Source of the DNA: Ovis canadensis
Lineage: Eukaryota > Chordata > Mammalia > Artiodactyla > Bovidae
Direction of reading: 5' to 3'
Assembly (NCBI RefSeq): GCF_042477335.2
Contig: NC_091253.1
Coordinates: 93,510,501 to 93,574,500 of the forward strand
DNA: 64,000 bases
The position numbers and the translations under genes were made by a program. This document shows positions 19,829-28,768 of this stretch, in pieces (positions within the stretch are counted from its first letter, which is position 1; every line of letters starts with the position of its first letter). Below the pieces are notes generated by a model. That model worked only from the letters and a program-made list of their open reading frames with translations, made no database searches and was not told the DNA's origin.

Positions 19829-20059
19829 CAGTTCAGTTCAGTTGCTCAGTCGTGTCCAACTCTTTGTGACCCCATGAACTGCAGCATGCCAGGCCTCTCT
19901 GTCCATCACCATCTCCTGGAGTTTACTCAAACTCATGTCCATTGAGTCGGTGATGCCATCCAACCATCTCATCCTCTGTCATCCTCTTCTCCTCCCGTCT
20001 TCAACCTTTCCCAGCATCAAGGTCTTTTCAAATGAGTCAACTCTTTGCATGAGGTGGCC
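19829..20059 (-). mobile_element. BovB 3' end (left piece, split by provirus)
   Basis: Reverse-oriented BovB tail 'ttcagttcagttcagttgctc' and 3' UTR, ending at 'gcatgaggtggcc' where the provirus enters. The same BovB resumes at 27,416 with 'aacgtattggagtttcagc'. GTGGCC, the last six bases (20,054-20,059), are the left proviral target duplication. Confidence 0.95.
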
Positions 20060-20563
20060 TGTCAGGGAACGTTTAATTTTAAGGAATCCTATATATTTTC
20101 TGTTTCTTAAAGGCCCTCTGTTCCTTATCAGTTCTTGGAAAACAGGAACGAGCAGAGCTGCCCGCAGTTCTCAGGACTGAGGTCATGAGGCAGAATGCAT
20201 ACATGGATTCCTTTCAGTAACCTTTTACTTTTCTGTAAAACTACTTAGTCATGTTCCTATTCGCAATACATGGATTGTCTTCTGGCCCTGTGACGATTGT
20301 TATTCCCCTAGTTACTGTTGATATGGTCCTATGACTATTGTTATTCCCTTTATTACTGTTGTTATGCATCTGGTTTTGGTGTTTTTTACTCAACTTTATT
20401 TTTCTGCCTAAAGCTTCCTTGTATAACAATATATAAGCACACACTGCCATGAATAAAGTACCCTTGTTCCACTAGAGATTTGGGTCCCCCGCATCCTTTT
20501 TTCTTCGCCTTCTTTTCATCGACTCCTGTCCCCAGGTCCTGGTCTGTCAAGAAGACCATAACA
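20060..20563 (+). repeat. 5' LTR of the provirus
   Basis: 504 bp, starting TGTCAGGG and ending CATAACA. It has a TATA box (TATATAAG, 20,430-20,437) and a polyadenylation signal (AATAAA, 20,452-20,457). By-eye alignment with the 3' LTR shows roughly 40-50 differences over about 500 positions. If a generic mammalian neutral rate applies, that suggests insertion on the order of 20 million years ago; this is an inference. Confidence 0.95.
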
Positions 20564-20565
20564 AG

Positions 20566-20583
20566 TGGCACCCGAACAGGGAC
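20566..20583 (+). other. Primer binding site, tRNA-Lys3-like
   Basis: TGGCACCCGAACAGGGAC lies 2 bp after the LTR end. It differs at one position from the 18-nt site complementary to the 3' end of tRNA-Lys3 (TGGCGCCCGAACAGGGAC). It is where minus-strand DNA synthesis would have begun. Confidence 0.92.
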
Positions 20584-20636
20584 CTGGAATACGCCCTTGG
20601 CAAGTGGACGGAGTGACTATGGACCTACTGAGGTCG

Positions 20637-20642
20637 GTAAGT
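20637..20642 (+). promoter_or_regulatory. Likely major splice donor
   Basis: GTAAGT preceded by CG, 14 nt before the gag start, matches a strong 5' splice site. In this virus group such a donor makes the env mRNA. Here the same event would also have produced a spliced mRNA carrying the BCL2L1 insert. Confidence 0.65.
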
Positions 20643-20650
20643 GCGGGGTT

Positions 20651-21217
20651 ATGGGACAAACAACTGGAAAGCCCCACCACTTTTCTGCTTTGCTTCATTA
20701 TTTATTTAAAGTTCAAGGACTTTCGGTTTCACATCAGTAAATAGAGGCTTGTCTCCAAATGGTAATTGAACATAATCCCTGGTTCTCTGATGAAAGCAAT
20801 TTTGATTTTAAGATTTGGAACTGGGTTAGAGAGAATGTTAAACAAGCCACAAGAAGGGGAAAAAATATTCCAATAGATTTCTGGTCCTTATGGGCCCTCA
20901 TTAAAGCCATGATTTTGCCTTTTCAAGGAAATTCTAGCCCCCCTGATATTCGACAACAGGCAGAACACTTGTTACATGAATATGAATTAGATGATAAAAC
21001 TTTACAAAAGGCCCAATTAAAACAACATAAAATATTTCAGAATTATCCCACCAGCTCTGCTCTGGCTGCCGCAAGTGTTCCTCCTCCTCTTGCAATGGAC
21101 TCAAAACTGAAAGTCCTCTTAACTCAAGGACAAAATGACTCTGCCAATGACTTTTCTGAGGCCATTTCGACACTAGAGCTGGCAATACTTTTTAAAATGA
21201 CAATGATAAGCCTTTAA
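20651..21217 (+). pseudogene. gag, matrix region (broken)
   Basis: Gag is the structural polyprotein that assembles the virus particle at the membrane. The reading frame starts MGQTTGK, a myristoylation-type N-terminus, only 67 nt after the primer site. A TAA at 20,738-20,740 stops it after 29 codons. The same frame continues (HNPWFSDESNFDFKIW) as a helical, matrix-like stretch to a stop at 21,215-21,217. The following capsid N-terminal half is not recognisable, and foreign-looking sequence takes its place. The start was chosen by the MGQ motif and its distance from the splice donor. Confidence 0.85.
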
Positions 21218-21510
21218 CACACACTCACATTTGTAAGAAAAAACTTTCTACTCATTCTCCTTCACGACAAAAGCTTTATGGGTTACTAGACTGGGACATG
21301 GAAAATGGGTTCTTTCTAGTCTTTACCACGTCACACCTGCCTTTAGCTGAACAAAACCTTGCCAAATATAAACTCCGAATAATTGAGCCACCCAACTCTG
21401 ACAAAGATGGTCCATATTTTGAGCCCAACCTATGGATGTGGATAAACCCCAACACTGTATTTCCCCCTGGAAAGTTAGAAGTCAATAAAACCTGAAGACA
21501 ACTACACAAA
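21218..21510 (+). other. Unidentified segment inside gag
   Basis: Where the capsid N-terminal domain should lie there is a different coding-like stretch. The plus-strand frame from about 21,270 to 21,495 (stop at 21,493-21,495) reads without stops, rich in aromatics and prolines, with pieces such as GLLDWDMENGFFLVF and EPNLWMWINPNTVFPPGKL. I do not recognise it as Gag or as any named protein. Gag-like sequence resumes at the major homology region (QGHNE, from 21,518). It could be a second captured host exon, relocated env sequence, or a divergent Gag segment. Confidence 0.45.
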
Positions 21511-22078
21511 AATATTTCAAGGACATAATGAAGCCCATGCTGATTTTTTAAGCTAGATTGGAAGTTGCTATTTCCTGTAATGTTATAGGAGAAGAAGCCA
21601 AAATGCAGCTAGAAAAACTGCTTGCTTATAAAAATGCAAACTAAAAATGTTAAAGAGCTATCACTCCAATTCATGAGACTGAGACTATTATTGATTATTT
21701 GAAGGCTTGTAGCAATTTAGGATCAGAACTTCAAAAAATGAAAATGTTAGCTGAGACAATGGTTGATGCCTTTAAAAAGGGAAATGAAGGATGTTTTGCA
21801 TATGGGGATAAGACCCATTTAAAAAAGAGATTGTCCTAAAAAATACACAGAAAAAATTAAAACTATTAAAAAGCCTCCAGGAATTTGCCCTCGTTGCCGT
21901 AAGGGGATACATTGGGCCAGAGAATGTCAATCTAAATATGATATTGAAGGGAAGCCTATTTTGGGAAACTCCAAGCTGGGGACTCCCCAGGTCCCCATCA
22001 ACAAAAACCAGGGGCAAACTGCATCTTTTCCTTCAAACCCTCAACATCCGGCAGTGCTGCTGTCAATATACCAGCCTT
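21511..22078 (+). pseudogene. gag, capsid C-terminus and nucleocapsid (broken)
   Basis: The capsid major homology region starts at 21,518 (QGHNE) and runs into a stop at the frame break near 21,560. Downstream are a helical capsid C-terminal stretch and two zinc-knuckle units that in life bind viral RNA. The first (from 21,792) has tyrosine in place of its second cysteine and a one-base shift inside. The second, at 21,886-21,927, is a complete CX2CX4HX4C. Frame changes occur at several homopolymer runs. Two knuckles are usual for this virus group. Confidence 0.85.
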
Positions 22079-22079
22079 A

Positions 22080-22740
22080 AATGATTTTCACCTTTTTCCT
22101 CAAGTATTCCCTTCTAGAATACCTACCAGACTTTTTGGACCCCTACCCCCACAAACCTTTAGTCTTTTACTTGGCTGATCTAGTTGGACTTCTAAAGGAG
22201 TTACTGTTCACCCTGAAGTAATTGATTCAGATTATAAGGGAAAAAATTCAAATTATGATGTCATCTCAGATACTATGGCAATTCAAAAAGGGGGACAAAA
22301 CTGCTCAAATACTTCTTTTACCTTAAATTTCTATTAACTCCTCTGATAACATACAGACAGGTGGATTTGACAATACAGATCAAAAACAATCCTTACGGAC
22401 ATCAGTAGTATCTGAATATGTATGACCAAATATAAATATCAAAATTAATGGCAAAAAATTTTTTGATCTTCTTGATACTGGATCTGATATCACTATTATC
22501 TGCAAACATTTATGGCCCAAATCTTGGCCTATACAGAGAAGTTCTTGCCAAATTGCAGGAGTTTCTCAAACCAAAGTACAAGAGGTTTATCAAAGTGTCC
22601 AAATATATCCATGTGAGGGACCATAAAGCCAGCCTGCAACATTATGACCTTATGTGATAGATGCACGCCTTAATTTAATAGGAAGAGATTTACTTATGCA
22701 ATGGCAAGCTGAAATATGTATTCCACGTTTTTCCTAGGGG
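22080..22740 (+). pseudogene. dUTPase and protease remnant
   Basis: In betaretroviruses the pro frame encodes a dUTPase, which removes dUTP, followed by the aspartic protease that cuts Gag and Pol. A dUTPase tail is visible near 22,200-22,240 (HPEVIDSDYKG). The protease active-site motif DTGS is at 22,474-22,485 within LLDTGSDITII, and a 'GRDLLMQW' stretch follows near 22,682. Stops lie at 22,423-22,425 and elsewhere, and the frame changes near 22,630. No complete product is possible. Confidence 0.85.
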
Positions 22741-22749
22741 CCACTGCTC

Positions 22750-24540
22750 ACTTAACAAATGGTGCAGTTATTAAAATAACTCGGAAAAGTGACAAGCCTA
22801 TTTGGAGAGAGCAATGGCCCCTTGCAAAAGAGAAACTAGAGGCTACTAAGGAACTTGTCAATACACAATTGAAATTAAAACACATTGAGGAATCTTATTC
22901 CCCTTGGAATTTTCCCATTTTTGTAATTAAAAAAATCTGACAAATGGCATCTCTTAACAGACCTTCAAAAAGTTAATGCATCTATGAAACCTATGGGTAC
23001 GCTGCAACCAGGCATTCCATCACCTACCACTGTTCCTCAAAACTGGCATATTATTATAGATTTACAGGATTGCTTTTTTACTATACCTTTACACCCTCTA
23101 GACTGAGAAAGATTTGCCTTCTCTCTTCCTTTTCCTAATCATATTGGGCCTCATAAATGATATCAATGAACTGTATTGCCTCAAGGAATAATGAATTCTC
23201 CCACCATGTGTTAATATTATGTAGCCAAAGCCCTTGAACCTGTGTGAAAACAATTTCCTGACTTTCTTGTTATTCATTATATGGATGATATATTGTTTTC
23301 AGCTCCATCTGTTTTAGAAACTCAACATATGTTTGACATAGCTCAACGATGTTTAGAAGACTCTGGATTAATTATTGCCCCTGAAAAAATTCAAACCTCT
23401 ACACCTTACCATTACTTAGGATCTATTGTTAATAGACAACATATTACTCCCCAACTAACACAAATTTGTGTTGATAAATTATCAACCTTGAATGATTTTC
23501 AAAAACTTTTAGGTGCTATAAACTGGATTAGACCCTCTTTAGGCATTGCAAATGATCAACTGACTAATTTATTTAATACTTTGAAAGGAGATCCTGATTT
23601 AAATATCCCTCGTTCACTTTCACAAGAGGTACAAGAGGAGCTCTGTTTAGTACAAAATAAATTACAAAAACAGTTTCTTACTCATATTAGACTTGAATTA
23701 CCTCTGAAGTTGTTTGTACTCCCTTCTCTCCATTCCCCCATAGGACTTCTTGCCCAACAAGAACACTCAATAGAATGGATCTATACCCATTTTAGAGGGA
23801 CCAAGTCACTTACACCCTATCTTGATTTGATTGCTCTAATAATTATCAATGGGAGAAATAGAACTAAGACTTTAATTGGCTCCGATCCTCACAAAATTAT
23901 ACTACCTATTAATAAAGCTTAATTTGAAAATGCATTAGAAACTTCTACCAATTTTCAGATAGCCTTCTTAGACTATTTTGGAGAGATTTCATTTTATTAT
24001 CCTTATAATAAACTTTGAAATTTCTTCAAAAATACTAAATTTATTATCTCTCGCATTGTTACAACACAGCCTATACCTCACACTGATGTTTTCTATATAG
24101 ATGGGACCAAAAAACTCTAAAGCCTCATTTTGGTCTCTCAAAGAAAATAAAGTCTTTAATACTAAATTCCATTCTGCCCAACAAAATGAATTATATGCTC
24201 TTATTCAAGTTATTCACCTACATCCTTACCCTATTAATATAATTTCTGACCCCTCAAATTCAGTTTTTATATTAAAAAATATAGAAACTTCTACCACAAA
24301 TTCTAATCAGTTATTATTCAACAACTTTTTCTTGAATTACAGTCTATTATTAGGGACCACACTTCCCCCATTTCACACACTGAAACTAAAAATAAAAAAA
24401 GTTAAAAAGGAGGACTACATAGGAACAATTCTATCTTCCCTATCCAGAGCAGACTTTACTAGATTCCAACGTAAGATATCCTTTAAACCTATAACTATTG
24501 TTAATACAGCTTTATTTGTTTTAAATTTTTAAAACTTACC
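22750..24540 (+). pseudogene. pol, reverse transcriptase and RNase H (broken)
   Basis: RT copies viral RNA into DNA and RNase H removes the RNA strand. The RT N-terminus ([13 protein letters not shown]) is at 22,806-22,844. A frameshift follows near 22,930. The catalytic YMDD box is intact at 23,278-23,289 in a 213-codon open piece (23,281-23,922). In-frame stops include 23,104-23,106, 23,158-23,160 and 23,167-23,169. RNase H begins with a catalytic Asp (DGT, 24,100) and keeps the later Glu/Asp stretches in the 24,101-24,532 frame (QNELYALIQ; IISDPSN). Several stops fall where tryptophan is normally conserved. Confidence 0.92.
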
Positions 24541-24863
24541 ACAAGGAGTTATCGTGAAATAAGCAGAAAAACATTTCTAGGAATTGTAAGACACTTCTCT
24601 TCCTCTGCCCATTTGGTATCAAGATGGGCTAACTAAACAATGGAAATCTGGGAAATTAATCTTACAGGGAAAAGGGTATGCTTGTATTTCTCCAGGTAGA
24701 TCCAATGAAAATCAACTGGCTTCCTCTTTGGACGATCTGCCCCAGAAGATCCTCCAGCATTCCAAATAAAAAAGAAATGACAAAATTCCCGAGAAAAATT
24801 CCAAACAAGCCATGGTGATTCTAAAAATCTCCAAGAAGCACCGCCCTCAACATCATCGACCTT
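24541..24863 (+). pseudogene. Integrase C-terminal remnant
   Basis: Only the DNA-binding C-terminal part of integrase is visible: WYQDGLTKQWKSGKLILQGKG at about 24,618-24,680, followed by a basic tail. The zinc-binding N-terminus and the DDE catalytic core, normally over 200 codons between RNase H and this point, are absent. A sizeable internal deletion lies near 24,540-24,600. It overlaps the start of the env region, as is usual for this group. Confidence 0.72.
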
Positions 24864-24873
24864 ATGATCTCCT

Positions 24874-25153
24874 GGCTGCTGCTGCTGCTGCTAAGTCGCT
24901 TCAGTCGTGTCCGACTCTGTGCGACCCCATAGATGGCAGCCCACCAGGCTCCCCCATCCTTGGGATTCTTCAGACAAGAATACTGGAGTGGGTTGCCATG
25001 TCCTTCTCCAATGCATGAAAGTGAAAAGTGAAAGTGAAGTCGCTCAGTCGTGTCCGACTCTCAGCGACCCCATGGACTGCAGCCCACCAGGCTCCTCCAT
25101 CCATGGAATTTTCCAGGCAAGAGTACTGGAGTGGGGTGCCATTGCCTTCTCCA
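24874..25153 (-). repeat. Bov-A2 SINE inserted in the provirus
   Basis: Antisense Bov-A2: 'ggctgctgctgctgctgc' start, two units joined by 'aaagtgaaaagtgaaagtg', end 'ccattgccttctcca'. It is flanked by the perfect 10-bp duplication ATGATCTCCT (24,864-24,873 and 25,154-25,163). It therefore entered after the provirus and gives a relative date. Confidence 0.96.
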
Positions 25154-25163
25154 ATGATCTCCT

Positions 25164-25347
25164 TACCTAGGGATAAACAAAAACCCTTACTAATCAAGAT
25201 AAAAATCTGGTTTCTCAACAGAGAATGCCTTGGAATCCAGAAAATATTTTTGTTGCTATGCTTGCTTTGCTTGCTTTTGCTTCCCCCACTCAAGCTGAAT
25301 TAATCATACTTTTTGGACCTATATACCTAACCCCCTTTTTCACTACA
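25164..25347 (+). pseudogene. env leader and start of surface subunit
   Basis: Env mediates entry; here only its N-terminal end is left. An ATG at 25,225 opens a frame with a hydrophobic leader (FVAMLALLAFASPTQA), suitable as a signal peptide. The family-typical surface start (FWTYIPNPPF) follows at about 25,309-25,340, but in the next frame, so a one-base slip near the T-run at 25,309-25,313 is likely. The remaining surface sequence is cut at about 25,347, where BCL2L1 sequence begins. Because of the slip, the leader frame runs on into BCL2L1. Confidence 0.8.
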
Positions 25348-25999
25348 GGTATTTTAGACAACAAACTGGTGGAACCCATCCTTATTATAAAAATATCTCA
25401 GAGAAACTGGGAACTAGTGGTTGACTTTCTCTCTTACAAGCTTTCCCAGAGAGGATACAGCAATGCCATCAGTGGCAACCCATCCTGGCACCTGGCAGGT
25501 AGCCCTGCAGTGAATGGAGCCACTGGCCACAGCAGAAGCTTGGACGCCAGGGAAGTGATCCCCATGGCAGCAGTAAAGCAAGCCCTGAGGGAGGCAGGCA
25601 ATGAGTTTGAACTGAGGTACCAATAGACATTCAGTGACCTGAATGTCCCAGCTTCACATCACTCTAGGGACAGCATATCATAGCTTTGAACAGGTAGTGT
25701 GTGAGCTCTTCCTGGACGGGGTGAACTGGGGTCACATTGTGGCCTTTTTCTCCTTCAGTGGGGCACTAAGCATGGAAAGCACAGACAAGGAGATGCAGGT
25801 ATTGGTGAGTCAGCTCACAACTTGGATGGCCACTTACCTAAATGGCCACCTAGAGCCTTGGATCCAGGAGAACAGCGGCTGGGACACTTTTGTGGAACTC
25901 TACAGAAACAATACAGCAACCGAGAGCCAAAAGGGCCAAGAGTGTTGGTCCCTGATGGGCATGACTGTGCTTGTATGGTTCTGCTGGGCTTGCTCTTCA
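25348..25999 (+). pseudogene. BCL2L1: Captured BCL2L1 (Bcl-xL) cDNA within env
   Basis: Bcl-xL sits in the mitochondrial outer membrane and blocks apoptosis by binding BH3 proteins and BAX/BAK. Homology starts in the 5' UTR, 45 nt before the start codon, which is ATA here (25,393-25,395). BH4 is present (ELVVDFLSYKLSQRGYS). Codons 24-48 of the loop are cleanly missing at 25,461/25,462. The caspase-site Asp61 is Gly. BH3 is at 25,573-25,620 (VKQALREAGNEFELRY, Asp95 to Asn). TAG follows at 25,624-25,626, and an extra base near 25,641 shifts the frame. BH1 is at 25,703-25,768 (Arg139 to His) and BH2 at 25,856-25,903. The coding intron expected near Trp188/Asp189 is absent (about 25,883), so the source was spliced RNA. 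Nine bases are missing before the tail anchor and one inside it. Homology stops near 25,999, before the stop codon, and env resumes. There is no poly-A and no target duplication of its own. Confidence 0.95.
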
Positions 26000-26890
26000 A
26001 CTCATAGTAACTGTTCCTTTCATTATAGTCATTCGTATTTTATACAAGCTAATGTTCCTCTTCCTTTTGTTATAGCTATAGAGAACTTACAGTTTAATAA
26101 GACTCTACGTTTTGTGACTTGTATAGATTACAAATTATATACTTGTCTTAATTCCTCTGTTTCTTTGAAAAATGAATCCCTGGAAAGAGGGTCCCATGTC
26201 AGGCCTTGCCTCCCAGCTGCTCACTAACTTACTCCAGCGATCTAAATGATTCACTGGATGGTTAATTCTTGGTATTTTGGGATTAGTAGCCATTTGCACC
26301 ACTGCTGCTGTTGCAGACATTGCTTTACAAACCTCAGTTCAAACACATAATTTTGTTCAAAATTAGACCAGAGGTGCTCATACTATGTGGGCCACTCAGG
26401 CTCAGATAGATGAGGAAGTTCAAGATGAACTACAGAAACTAAAATCAGCCACCAAATGGGTTGGAGATCGATTAATAGACTTACAGAAGCAAATAATACT
26501 AAAATGTGATTGGAATTCTGCTCAATTTTGTATTATCCCTGTTCAATTCAACTATAGTGCTTATGACTGGGAGCAAATCAAATTTCATTTGCAAGACATA
26601 CACGATATGCTTCCCTAAATGTAGTTATTACAAAAAGAAATCTTCAAAACCTTCTCTAAAAGTCTGCCCTCTTCGAATAATTTGGAAACTTTAGCTGAAC
26701 AGCTAGCTGATCAATTATCTGGGCTAGACCCTTAAGGATGGTTCCAAAGTATTACTCATAGTATTGGGTCTGGTGCTGTAACATTGGTAATTGTCCTGGT
26801 AATTATATTTGTTGTATACCGATGCCTTTCAACAAAAATTGTTCAAACTAAACAAACTCAATTGGTCAAGGCCTTTTTCACAACAATAAT
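26000..26890 (+). pseudogene. env, end of surface and transmembrane subunit (broken)
   Basis: Env sequence resumes right after BCL2L1. A surface C-terminal stretch (VPLPFVIAIENLQFNKTL...TCIDYKLYTCL) is open to 26,227. The transmembrane subunit follows in other frames: a hydrophobic fusion-peptide-like region at about 26,250-26,320, a stop TAG at 26,364-26,366, then a heptad-rich ectodomain (26,385-26,618; DEEVQDELQKLKSATKWVGDR, then CDWN...FC). The membrane span is at 26,772-26,825 (GAVTLVIVLVIIFVVYRC), followed by a short basic tail. Stops and shifts block any complete product. The order proves that BCL2L1 replaces the middle of env. Confidence 0.88.
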
Positions 26891-26903
26891 AAAAAGGGGG
26901 TAT
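26891..26903 (+). other. Polypurine tract
   Basis: AAAAAGGGGG (26,891-26,900) lies just before the 3' LTR, where plus-strand DNA synthesis is primed in retroviruses. Confidence 0.85.
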
Positions 26904-27409
26904 TTTCAGGAAACGTTTAATTTTAAGGAATCCTATATGTTTTCTGTTTCTTGAGGGCCCTCTGTTCCTTATCAGTTCCTGGAAAACAGGAACAAGCAGA
27001 GCTGCCCGCAGTTCTCAGGACTGAGGTCATGAGGCAGAACGCATACATGGATTCCTTTTAGTAACCTTTTACTTTTCTGTAAAACTACTAGTCATACTAC
27101 CTTACTTGCAATACATGGATTGTCTTTTGGCTCTGTGACGATTGTTATTCCCCTAGTTACTGTTGTTATGGCCCTATGACTATTGTTATTCCCTTAGTTA
27201 ATGTTGTTACGTGTCTGGTTTCGGTGTTTTTTACTTAACTTTATTTTTCTGCCTAAAGCTTCCTTGTATAGCACTATATAAGCACACACTGCCAGGAATA
27301 AAGTACCGTTGTTCCACTAGAGACTTGGGTCCCTCGCATCCTTCTTTTCTTCACCTTCTTCTCGTTGACTCCTGTCCCCACGTCCCGGTCTGTCAAGAAT
27401 ACCATAACA
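26904..27409 (+). repeat. 3' LTR of the provirus
   Basis: 506 bp. The first dinucleotide is TT rather than TG, a later mutation; the end is CATAACA. TATA box at 27,275-27,282 and AATAAA at 27,297-27,302, as in the 5' LTR. Followed directly by the right target duplication GTGGCC (27,410-27,415). Confidence 0.95.
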
Positions 27410-27415
27410 GTGGCC

Positions 27416-28768
27416 AACGTATTGGAGTTTCAGCTTCAACATCAGTCCGTCCAATGAATATTCAGGACTGATTTCCTTCAGGATAGACTGGTTGCATCTC
27501 CTTGCAGTCCAAGGGACTCTCAAGAGACTTCTCCAACACCACAGTTCAAAAGCATCAATTCTTCAGTGCTCAGCTTTTTTGTAGTTCAACTCTCACATCC
27601 ATACATGACCACTGGAAAAACCATAGCCTTGACTAGACAGACTTTTGTTGGCAAAGTAATGTCTCTGCTTTTGAATATGCTGTCGAGGTTGGTCATAACT
27701 TTTCTTTCAAAGAGTAAGCGTCTTTTAATTTCATGGCTGCAGTCACCATCTGCAGTGATTGTGGAGCCCCCCAAAATAAAGTCTGCCACTGTTTCCCCAT
27801 CTATTTCTCATGAAGTGATGGGACTGGATGCCTTGATCTTAGTTTTCTGAATGTTGAGCTTTAAGTCAACTTTTTCACTCTCCTCTTTCACTTAACATCA
27901 AGAGGCTCTTTAGTTCTTCTTCACTTTCTGCATAAGGGTGGTGTCATGTGCATATCTGAGGTTATTGATATTTCTCCCAGCAATCTTGATTCCAGCTTGT
28001 GCTTTATCCAGCCCAGCATTTCTCATGATGTATTCTGCATATCAGTTAAATAGGCAGGGTGACAATATACAGCCTTGATGTACTCCTTTTCCTATTTGGA
28101 ACCAGTCTGTTGTTCCATGTCCAGTTCTAACTGTTGCTTCTTGACCTGCATACAAATTTCTCAAGAGGCAGGTCAGGTGGTCTGGTAGTCCCATCTCTTT
28201 CAGCATTTCCCACAGTTTATTGTGATCCACACAGTCAAAGTCTTTGGCATAGTGAATAAAGCAGAAGTAGATGTTTTTCTGGAACTCTCTTGCTGTTTTG
28301 ATGATCCAGTAGATGTTGGCAATTTGATCTCTGGTTCCTCTGCCTTTTCTAAAACCAGCTTGAACATCTGGCAGTTCAAGGTTCATGTATTATTAAAGCC
28401 TGGCTTGGAGAATTTGAGCATTACTTTACTAGCATGTGGAATGAGTGCAACTGTGTGGTAGTTTGAGCATTCTTTGGCCTTGCCTCTCTTTGGGATTGGA
28501 ATGAAAACTGACTTTTTCCAGTCCTGTGGCCACTGCTGAGTTTTCCACATTTACTGGCATATTGAGTGTGACAGTTTCACAGCATCATCTTTTAGGATTT
28601 GAAATAGCTCAACTGGAATTCCATCACCTCCACTAGCTTTGTTTGTAGTGATGCTTCCTAAGGCTCACTTGACGTCACATTCCAGGATGTCTAGCTCTAG
28701 GTGAGTGATCACACCATTGTGATTATCTGGGTCATGAAGATCTTTTTTGTATTCTTGCCACTTCTTCT
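27416..28768 (-). pseudogene. BovB RT region (right piece, split by provirus)
   Basis: Continuation of the BovB interrupted at 20,059. On the minus strand it encodes the RT C-terminal region and most of the RT domain: FRKGRGTRDQIANIYW within 28,042-28,386, and the RT catalytic box changed to YAHD (27,943-27,954). Frameshifts separate the pieces. The 5' end is truncated at about 28,768, next to the target duplication at 28,769-28,778. With the left piece it is an ordinary 5'-truncated BovB of about 1.6 kb. Confidence 0.95.

What the first reader, a model, noticed from the sequence alone, without database searches (positions are those of the whole stretch)
25348..25999. Endogenous retrovirus that captured the anti-apoptotic gene BCL2L1
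A spliced, same-strand BCL2L1 copy sits exactly in place of the middle of env, with viral env on both sides. It has part of the 5' UTR but no stop codon, 3' UTR, poly-A or target duplication of its own. That is the signature of retroviral transduction (as with v-onc genes), not of a LINE-made retrocopy. An ancient ruminant retrovirus carrying a death inhibitor would be a striking and, to my knowledge, undescribed fossil. Novelty is my inference, not a database result.
Basis: partly seen in the sequence, partly recalled or inferred. Interest (0 to 1): 0.95.

Follow-up and report, generated by a model that had tools for sequence, protein, structure and literature searches.

The report
Ancient sheep retrovirus carrying stolen Bcl-xL
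Several fossil retroviruses in a sheep-like genome carry the same copied host gene, the cell-death blocker Bcl-xL, in place of part of their envelope gene, which shows that an extinct virus of ruminants took up the gene and multiplied with it, much as a living koala virus has been seen to do.

Summary
Confirmed. Window 25346-25999 is a spliced, sense-strand BCL2L1 (Bcl-xL) cDNA inside a betaretrovirus-like provirus (20060-27409; 6-bp target repeat GTGGCC). It replaces about 0.7 kb of env SU, with env on both sides. It is not alone: the same genome holds five loci with the same two env/BCL2L1 joins, four with LTRs at both ends, one 5'-truncated. Ordinary-env relatives continue in env at these points. 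Database proteins with the same 3' join come, where named, from Ovis, Capra, Bos, Bubalus, Moschus, Muntiacus, Cervus and Rangifer. The 5' join lies on a 5-6-nt microhomology (CAGGT) inside BCL2L1 exon 2. The 3' join removes the last codons and the stop; an env-derived stop follows two codons later in 4 of 5 copies. The insert has no poly-A, 3' UTR or target repeat of its own. This is one retroviral transduction followed by multiplication. The closest precedent is koala retrovirus, which independently replaced env with BCL2L1 (Nat Commun 2021). The window copy is dead. A splice from virus leader to insert fits an annotated sheep protein. Anti-apoptotic function during spread is likely but unproven; the selection tests are weak.

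The parts
20054..20059 (.). 5' target-site repeat GTGGCC
   Evidence: a copy of the host repeat elsewhere has the two flanks joined without the provirus
20060..20563 (+). 5' LTR (TG...CA)
20566..20583 (+). primer binding site, tRNA-Lys type (label recalled)
   Evidence: sequence, place
20594..20642 (+). leader with splice donor G|GTAAGT (GTAAGT from 20637)
20741..22080 (+). broken gag (Gag_p10 20741-21214, zinc knuckle 21823-22077)
23248..24529 (+). broken pol (RT thumb, RNase H pieces; the RNase H match is below Pfam's cut-off)
24874..25153 (+). later SINE-type insertion, absent at this point from the other four copies
25154..25350 (+). env 5' piece: leader region (env ATG 25225), ending in a pyrimidine tract and CAG
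25346..25350 (+). 5' join: CAGGT shared by ordinary env and BCL2L1 exon 2; also a splice-acceptor-like CAG|GT
25346..25999 (+). captured BCL2L1 cDNA: 47 nt before the former start codon, then exon 2 and exon 3 joined (about 25882/25883), without the last codons and stop; 25-codon loop deletion, ATA for ATG and frame breaks in this copy
26000..26440 (+). env 3' piece (SU end and start of TM), with a deletion of about 54 nt shared by the five BCL2L1 copies; TAG at 26005-26007 ends the Bcl-xL frame
26367..26615 (+). env TM piece (GP41)
26904..27409 (+). 3' LTR (start approximate)
27410..27415 (.). 3' target-site repeat GTGGCC

Best explanation
An extinct betaretrovirus-like virus of early pecoran ruminants transduced BCL2L1. 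Reverse transcriptase switched from env to co-packaged spliced BCL2L1 mRNA at a CAGGT microhomology and back into env near the gene's last codons, replacing about 0.7 kb of SU with about 0.73 kb of cDNA (joins shown; template switch inferred). The chimera then multiplied in the germline, by repeated entry or by retrotransposition (five loci shown; route not shown). It could make Bcl-xL from a spliced mRNA, leader donor G|GTAAGT to acceptor CAG|GT at the join, with the insert's own ATG and an env-derived stop. An annotated sheep protein fits that splice; use by the virus is inferred. Having lost most of SU, it needed a helper for infection or moved inside cells (inferred). Bcl-xL would have kept infected cells alive (inferred, about 0.6). 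The confidence below is for origin by transduction and multiplication.
For: Five loci with the same joins. Four have LTRs at both ends, one of these with a truncated 3' LTR; target repeats are perfect at C9 and 5 of 6 at C3. Ordinary env runs on past the 5' point in 10 of 12 loci and up to the 3' point in the 10 of 12 printed. Replaced env is 678-749 nt in the 8 of 12 loci where it could be measured, against inserts of 727-738 nt, or 651 in the window copy. The BCL2L1 copies form one env clade (94/92) and share a deletion of about 54 nt, 5 of 5 against 0 of 12. Of 183 database rows, 21 end at the join with NS/NT/SS and 7 run into env letters, 3 more by eye. Changes shared by all or all but one copy against the parent are G>A in 20 of 26, against 36 of 134 private changes, p 2e-6; by all copies 13 of 18, p 3e-4. 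That fits passage through a retrovirus. The sheep protein P0019 fits the C3 leader exon spliced to the insert.
Against: Selection tests are weak. Shared coding changes are 11 N and 9 S against 13.2 N expected (P 0.20). dN/dS among copies is 0.63-0.92. The open C3 frame could be chance (P of no stop 0.14). No transcript was seen directly. BH1 Arg139 (importance recalled) is changed in 5 of 10 viral rows that cover it. G>A is polarised on today's parent only, and part of its exon 2 is masked. Two cervid rows with the NS end (P0151, P0162) group with host BCL2L1 in the tree: an early branch or, less likely, a second capture.
Confidence: 0.93

Rival explanations
1. A LINE-made BCL2L1 retrocopy fell into the env of one provirus, which was then copied.
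For: The insert is a spliced cDNA. Ruminant genomes hold active LINEs (established knowledge).
Against: No poly-A, 3' UTR or target repeat at the insert; about 0.7 kb of env is replaced rather than interrupted; both joins lie within exons, the 5' one on a microhomology.
Confidence: 0.03
2. Transduction as above, but the gene was a passenger: never translated to advantage, and the copies spread as ordinary env-less retrotransposing elements.
For: dN/dS among copies not far below 1, no significant constraint, BH1 changes in several rows.
Against: The frame is set up for expression: own ATG in 4 of 5 copies, env-derived stop in 4 of 5, splice-acceptor-like site at the join. Several species keep long open frames, though those rows are listed because they are open.
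Confidence: 0.35
3. One or more of the open copies, such as the one on C3, now serves the host as a second Bcl-xL gene.
For: Open frame in this genome and an annotated sheep protein that fits a spliced product (P0019); Capra has a close relative (P0122).
Against: Changes private to C3 are 10 N and 3 S against 8.0 N expected. An open frame is not unlikely by chance, and the copy is young.
Confidence: 0.08

Closest known systems
Koala retrovirus that transduced BCL2L1 (PMC7910482 and PMC12789523, passages read)
   Same: Same gene, Bcl-xL isoform, exons joined at the splice junction, env replaced with env ends on both sides, short microhomologies (CAG and CCTCCC there; CAGGT at the 5' join here).
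   Different: KoRV is a living gammaretrovirus (class recalled); in that provirus most of gag and pol is replaced as well. It was seen at a few low-coverage sites in one koala, with signs of a similar capture in a second, and as a germline copy in four. Here it is an ancient class II family with gag and pol remnants, five loci in one genome, and relatives in three ruminant families.
Crocodilian ERVs that captured nectin3 and KIT ligand (PMC4299795, passages read)
   Same: Host mRNA captured by an endogenous retrovirus family and multiplied with it; nectin3 replaces env.
   Different: Other genes, other ERV groups, other hosts. Purifying selection was reported for the KIT-ligand frames; it is not clear here.
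Acute transforming retroviruses such as Rous sarcoma virus (recalled)
   Same: Host cDNA in sense between LTRs, expressed by viral splicing.
   Different: Those are exogenous viruses of single tumours or flocks; here the chimera is in the germline at several loci.
Viral Bcl-2 homologues of herpesviruses and poxviruses (recalled)
   Same: Viral use of a Bcl-2 family death inhibitor.
   Different: DNA viruses, far more diverged proteins.

Membership tests
Host-gene-transducing retrovirus | Intronless host cDNA in sense orientation between LTRs | tested here: met
Host-gene-transducing retrovirus | Viral sequence replaced, virus on both sides | tested here: met
Host-gene-transducing retrovirus | No poly-A or target repeat of the insert's own | tested here: met
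   A-runs counted in 5 of 5 copies; joins read
Host-gene-transducing retrovirus | Copies at several loci with the same joins | tested here: met
   (5 loci, a lower bound)
Host-gene-transducing retrovirus | Gene expressed from viral mRNA | tested here: inconclusive
   donor and acceptor-like sites present and used in sheep protein model P0019; no RNA data
Host-gene-transducing retrovirus | Gene gives the virus or infected cell an advantage | not testable with these tools
   indirect tests inconclusive
Class II (betaretrovirus-like) endogenous retrovirus | Gag p10, CCHC zinc knuckle, RT thumb, GP41-type TM; 6-bp target repeat | tested here: met
   that these mark class II is recalled, and no pol tree was made
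LINE-made processed retrocopy | Poly-A tail and target repeat at the cDNA | tested here: not met

The most novel reading that the evidence does not exclude
A retroviral Bcl-xL stayed a working viral gene through millions of years of multiplication in pecoran germlines, and one copy, shared by sheep and goat, still makes an LTR-driven, spliced Bcl-xL protein in its hosts.
Probability: 0.12. Interest if true: 0.93.

Novelty: new variant of a known kind. Interest (0 to 1): 0.8.

Why it matters
Transducing retroviruses are generally seen as short-lived accidents (recalled). Here one multiplied in the germline and left several datable copies in one genome (LTR divergence 0.024 to 0.104 in four of them), with relatives in three families of ruminants. 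An unrelated virus in koalas captured the same gene at the same place in env, which suggests that BCL2L1 capture is favoured and makes that testable. It also warns that several ruminant entries annotated 'bcl-2-like protein 1' are retroviral copies and not the cellular gene.

Tried and rejected
Viral contig searches found nothing: Bcl-xL piece and 3' join pattern. LINE origin rejected. The idea that env and Bcl-xL form one designed fusion was dropped: the window's env leader reads in frame into the insert, but it has a local 4-nt loss there, and in other copies tract lengths differ and stops follow the join. The first thought that the other four genome copies were plain processed pseudogenes was wrong; each has env at both sides. 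Selection tests were not significant, and pairwise dN/dS mixes viral and later change. The counts took in a few columns beyond the 3' join; one search repeats them without those columns, and its numbers are used here. Rows against or unclear: P0046 ends like the host gene although it looks viral elsewhere; P0089 looks like a chimera of two copies; P0151 and P0162 group with host BCL2L1 although they end like the proviral copies. Of 183 database rows, 108 fell into none of the three classes; the two searches listed the best 120 of 225 and of 242 hits, and host range outside Pecora was judged only from names in those lists.

Full report
What is there. Window 25346-25999 matches BCL2L1 exon 2 and exon 3, joined without the intron that separates them by about 49 kb in the parent gene of the same genome. 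Bcl-xL chains in the PDB match at E 2.7e-51, and Pfam finds BH4 and Bcl-2 domains. Part of the parent's exon 2 is masked and was left out. The segment lies in a provirus with LTRs at 20060-20563 and about 26904-27409, gag, pol and GP41-type env pieces in the same orientation, and the 6-bp target repeat GTGGCC. A copy of the flanking host repeat elsewhere runs through the site without a provirus. The contig lengths and the near-identity with Ovis aries proteins suggest a sheep genome (inference).

One event, many copies. In the own genome the DNA search and protein search find five loci where BCL2L1 and env are joined: C9 (the window), C2, C15, C3 and C5. One search scored 150 of 256 candidates, so five is a lower bound; most of its 147 matches lie in the env part of the query. 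At all five, the 5' join reads env ...ACTACAGGT then BCL2L1 ATTTTAG..., with small differences, and the 3' join reads ...GGGCT(T/C)GCTCT... then env CTCATAGTAACT or a close variant. Ordinary env reads CTGCAGGT|TGTAGAA or close variants at the 5' point in 10 of 12 loci of L017-L028 (L019 is interrupted there by a repeat and L020 gave no leader match). At the 3' point env runs through in the 10 of 12 printed. The parent reads GAGCAGGT|GTTTTGG inside exon 2, about 70 nt after an intron-end-like CTTCAG. So the 5' join sits on a shared CAGGT. At the 3' join the parent has TTCAGTCGG and env has GTAGTCATAG; the overlap is short and one base differs in the copies. The insert is 727-738 nt long (651 in the window), against 678-749 nt of env replaced in the 8 of 12 ordinary loci where both points were found. 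No A-run over 3 nt lies near the 3' join in any of five copies. In a tree of the env segment after the join, the five BCL2L1 copies group together (94/92) apart from 12 ordinary env, and they share a deletion of about 54 nt (lengths 425-432 against 481-488).

Host range. Two searches of 5.8 billion proteins (the best 120 of 225 and of 242 hits listed) gave 183 rows held here. Of these, 21 end at the join with NS, NT or SS in place of the host's last residues, 7 run on into env letters by pattern, 47 end like the host gene and 108 are neither. Three more (P0006, P0007, P0096) join env by eye. Named members are Ovis, Capra, Bos, Bubalus, Moschus, Muntiacus, Cervus and Rangifer, all Pecora (Moschus and Rangifer looked up; the rest from general knowledge). 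In a tree of 25 chosen proteins 17 viral rows form one side (100/98). A Muntiacus/Rangifer pair that ends like the proviral copies but keeps host-like residues (RRTF, WFL) groups with host BCL2L1. I read it as an early branch of the same capture, because it has the same end; a second capture is not excluded. Whether copies in different species sit at the same sites could not be tested.

Age. LTR pairs differ by K2P 0.081 (C9, 501 sites), 0.104 (C15, 241 sites, 3' LTR truncated), 0.078 (C5, 490 sites) and 0.024 (C3, 465 sites); for C2 no 5' LTR was found in the stretch fetched. At recalled rates of 2.2-3e-9 per site and year these are about 13-24 million years for three copies and 4-5.5 for C3. 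Gene conversion between LTRs could make C3 look young, but a goat protein, P0122, pairs with its sheep protein in the tree (100/100), as expected of an insertion before the sheep-goat split.

How it most likely worked. The copies other than the window keep the BCL2L1 ATG (4 of 5). Two codons after the join an env-derived stop ends the frame: TAG in C9, C15 and C5, TGA in C3; C2 stops one codon before the join's end. The product would be Bcl-xL with its last Arg-Lys replaced; in C3 the frame is open for 232 codons from the ATG. The C/T-rich env tract plus CAG before GT makes a splice-acceptor-like site at the insert's edge; ordinary env has a similar tract. The leader has G|GTAAGT in C9, C3 and C5 and A|GTAAGT in C15. 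The annotated sheep protein P0019 (JEQ12_014112), 98% identical to the C3 frame, begins as C3 would if these two sites are joined: leader ...PPEDG, then ILDNRLVEPILIIK and MSQSN. The annotation may rest on prediction alone. So the virus could express Bcl-xL from a spliced mRNA, in the manner of src in Rous sarcoma virus (recalled). With most of SU removed, infection needed a helper's Env; ordinary-env relatives in the same genome show that such viruses existed.

Was it used? Changes shared by all or all but one copy against the parent are G>A in 20 of 26 sites, against 36 of 134 private changes (p 2e-6); counting only changes shared by all copies, 13 of 18 (p 3e-4, which replaces the counts). 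That fits retroviral passage, though only today's parent was at hand to polarise. Coding tests lean towards constraint but do not establish it: shared changes 11 N to 9 S, 13.2 N expected (P 0.20); dN/dS against the parent 0.36-0.76, which includes the parent's own silent changes, and 0.63-0.92 among copies. The open C3 frame has no stop where 1.7 are expected in the 151 codons compared (P 0.14), and its private changes are 10 N to 3 S. In the protein rows, Ala104 is Thr in 13 of 14 viral rows that cover it and Arg139 is changed in 5 of 10 (importance of these residues recalled). I hold function during spread at about 0.6.

The window copy itself. It has lost the start codon, carries a 25-codon in-frame loop deletion, at least one stop and frame breaks, and a later SINE-type insertion upstream. 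Gag and pol are broken as well.

Known and new. Papers were searched. The koala retrovirus papers (PMC7910482 and PMC12789523, passages read) describe env replaced by BCL2L1 with exons joined and microhomologies CAG and CCTCCC; the later paper says the germline copy was found in four koalas that died of leukemia. PMC4299795 (passages read) describes crocodilian ERVs that captured nectin3, in place of env, and KIT ligand. No title or abstract start in those listings points to BCL2L1 in a ruminant ERV; I did not open the other listed papers, and subscription papers and preprints are not held. The finding is thus a new, ancient and independently evolved case of a known kind, with a striking parallel in a living virus.

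Noticed in passing
L031:4239-4298 (G000:C3): The C3 provirus carries a 60-nt piece of BCL2L1 exon 3 in antisense inside its env leader, a second rearrangement of the captured gene.
   Followed up: no
window 25461-25462: The window copy lacks 25 codons of the Bcl-xL regulatory loop in frame; goat P0008 begins at the same edge (NAINGNP) and yak P0085 shows GYSN, so a loop-deleted subfamily may exist.
   Followed up: partly
P0122, P0149, P0156, P0160, P0162: Ruminant gene models of the proviral copies drop the stretch after SFEQ, much like the Bcl-xS isoform (isoform recalled).
   Followed up: no
window 19832-20059 and 27410-28000: The provirus sits inside an older repeat that other loci carry uninterrupted; a frame that looks like a LINE reverse transcriptase lies at 28042-28389 on the minus strand (the label is by eye).
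   Followed up: no
P0019, P0053, P0122, P0149, P0156, P0160: Ruminant database entries named Bcl-2-like protein 1 carry the proviral 3' join, so they are proviral copies and not the cellular gene.
   Followed up: partly
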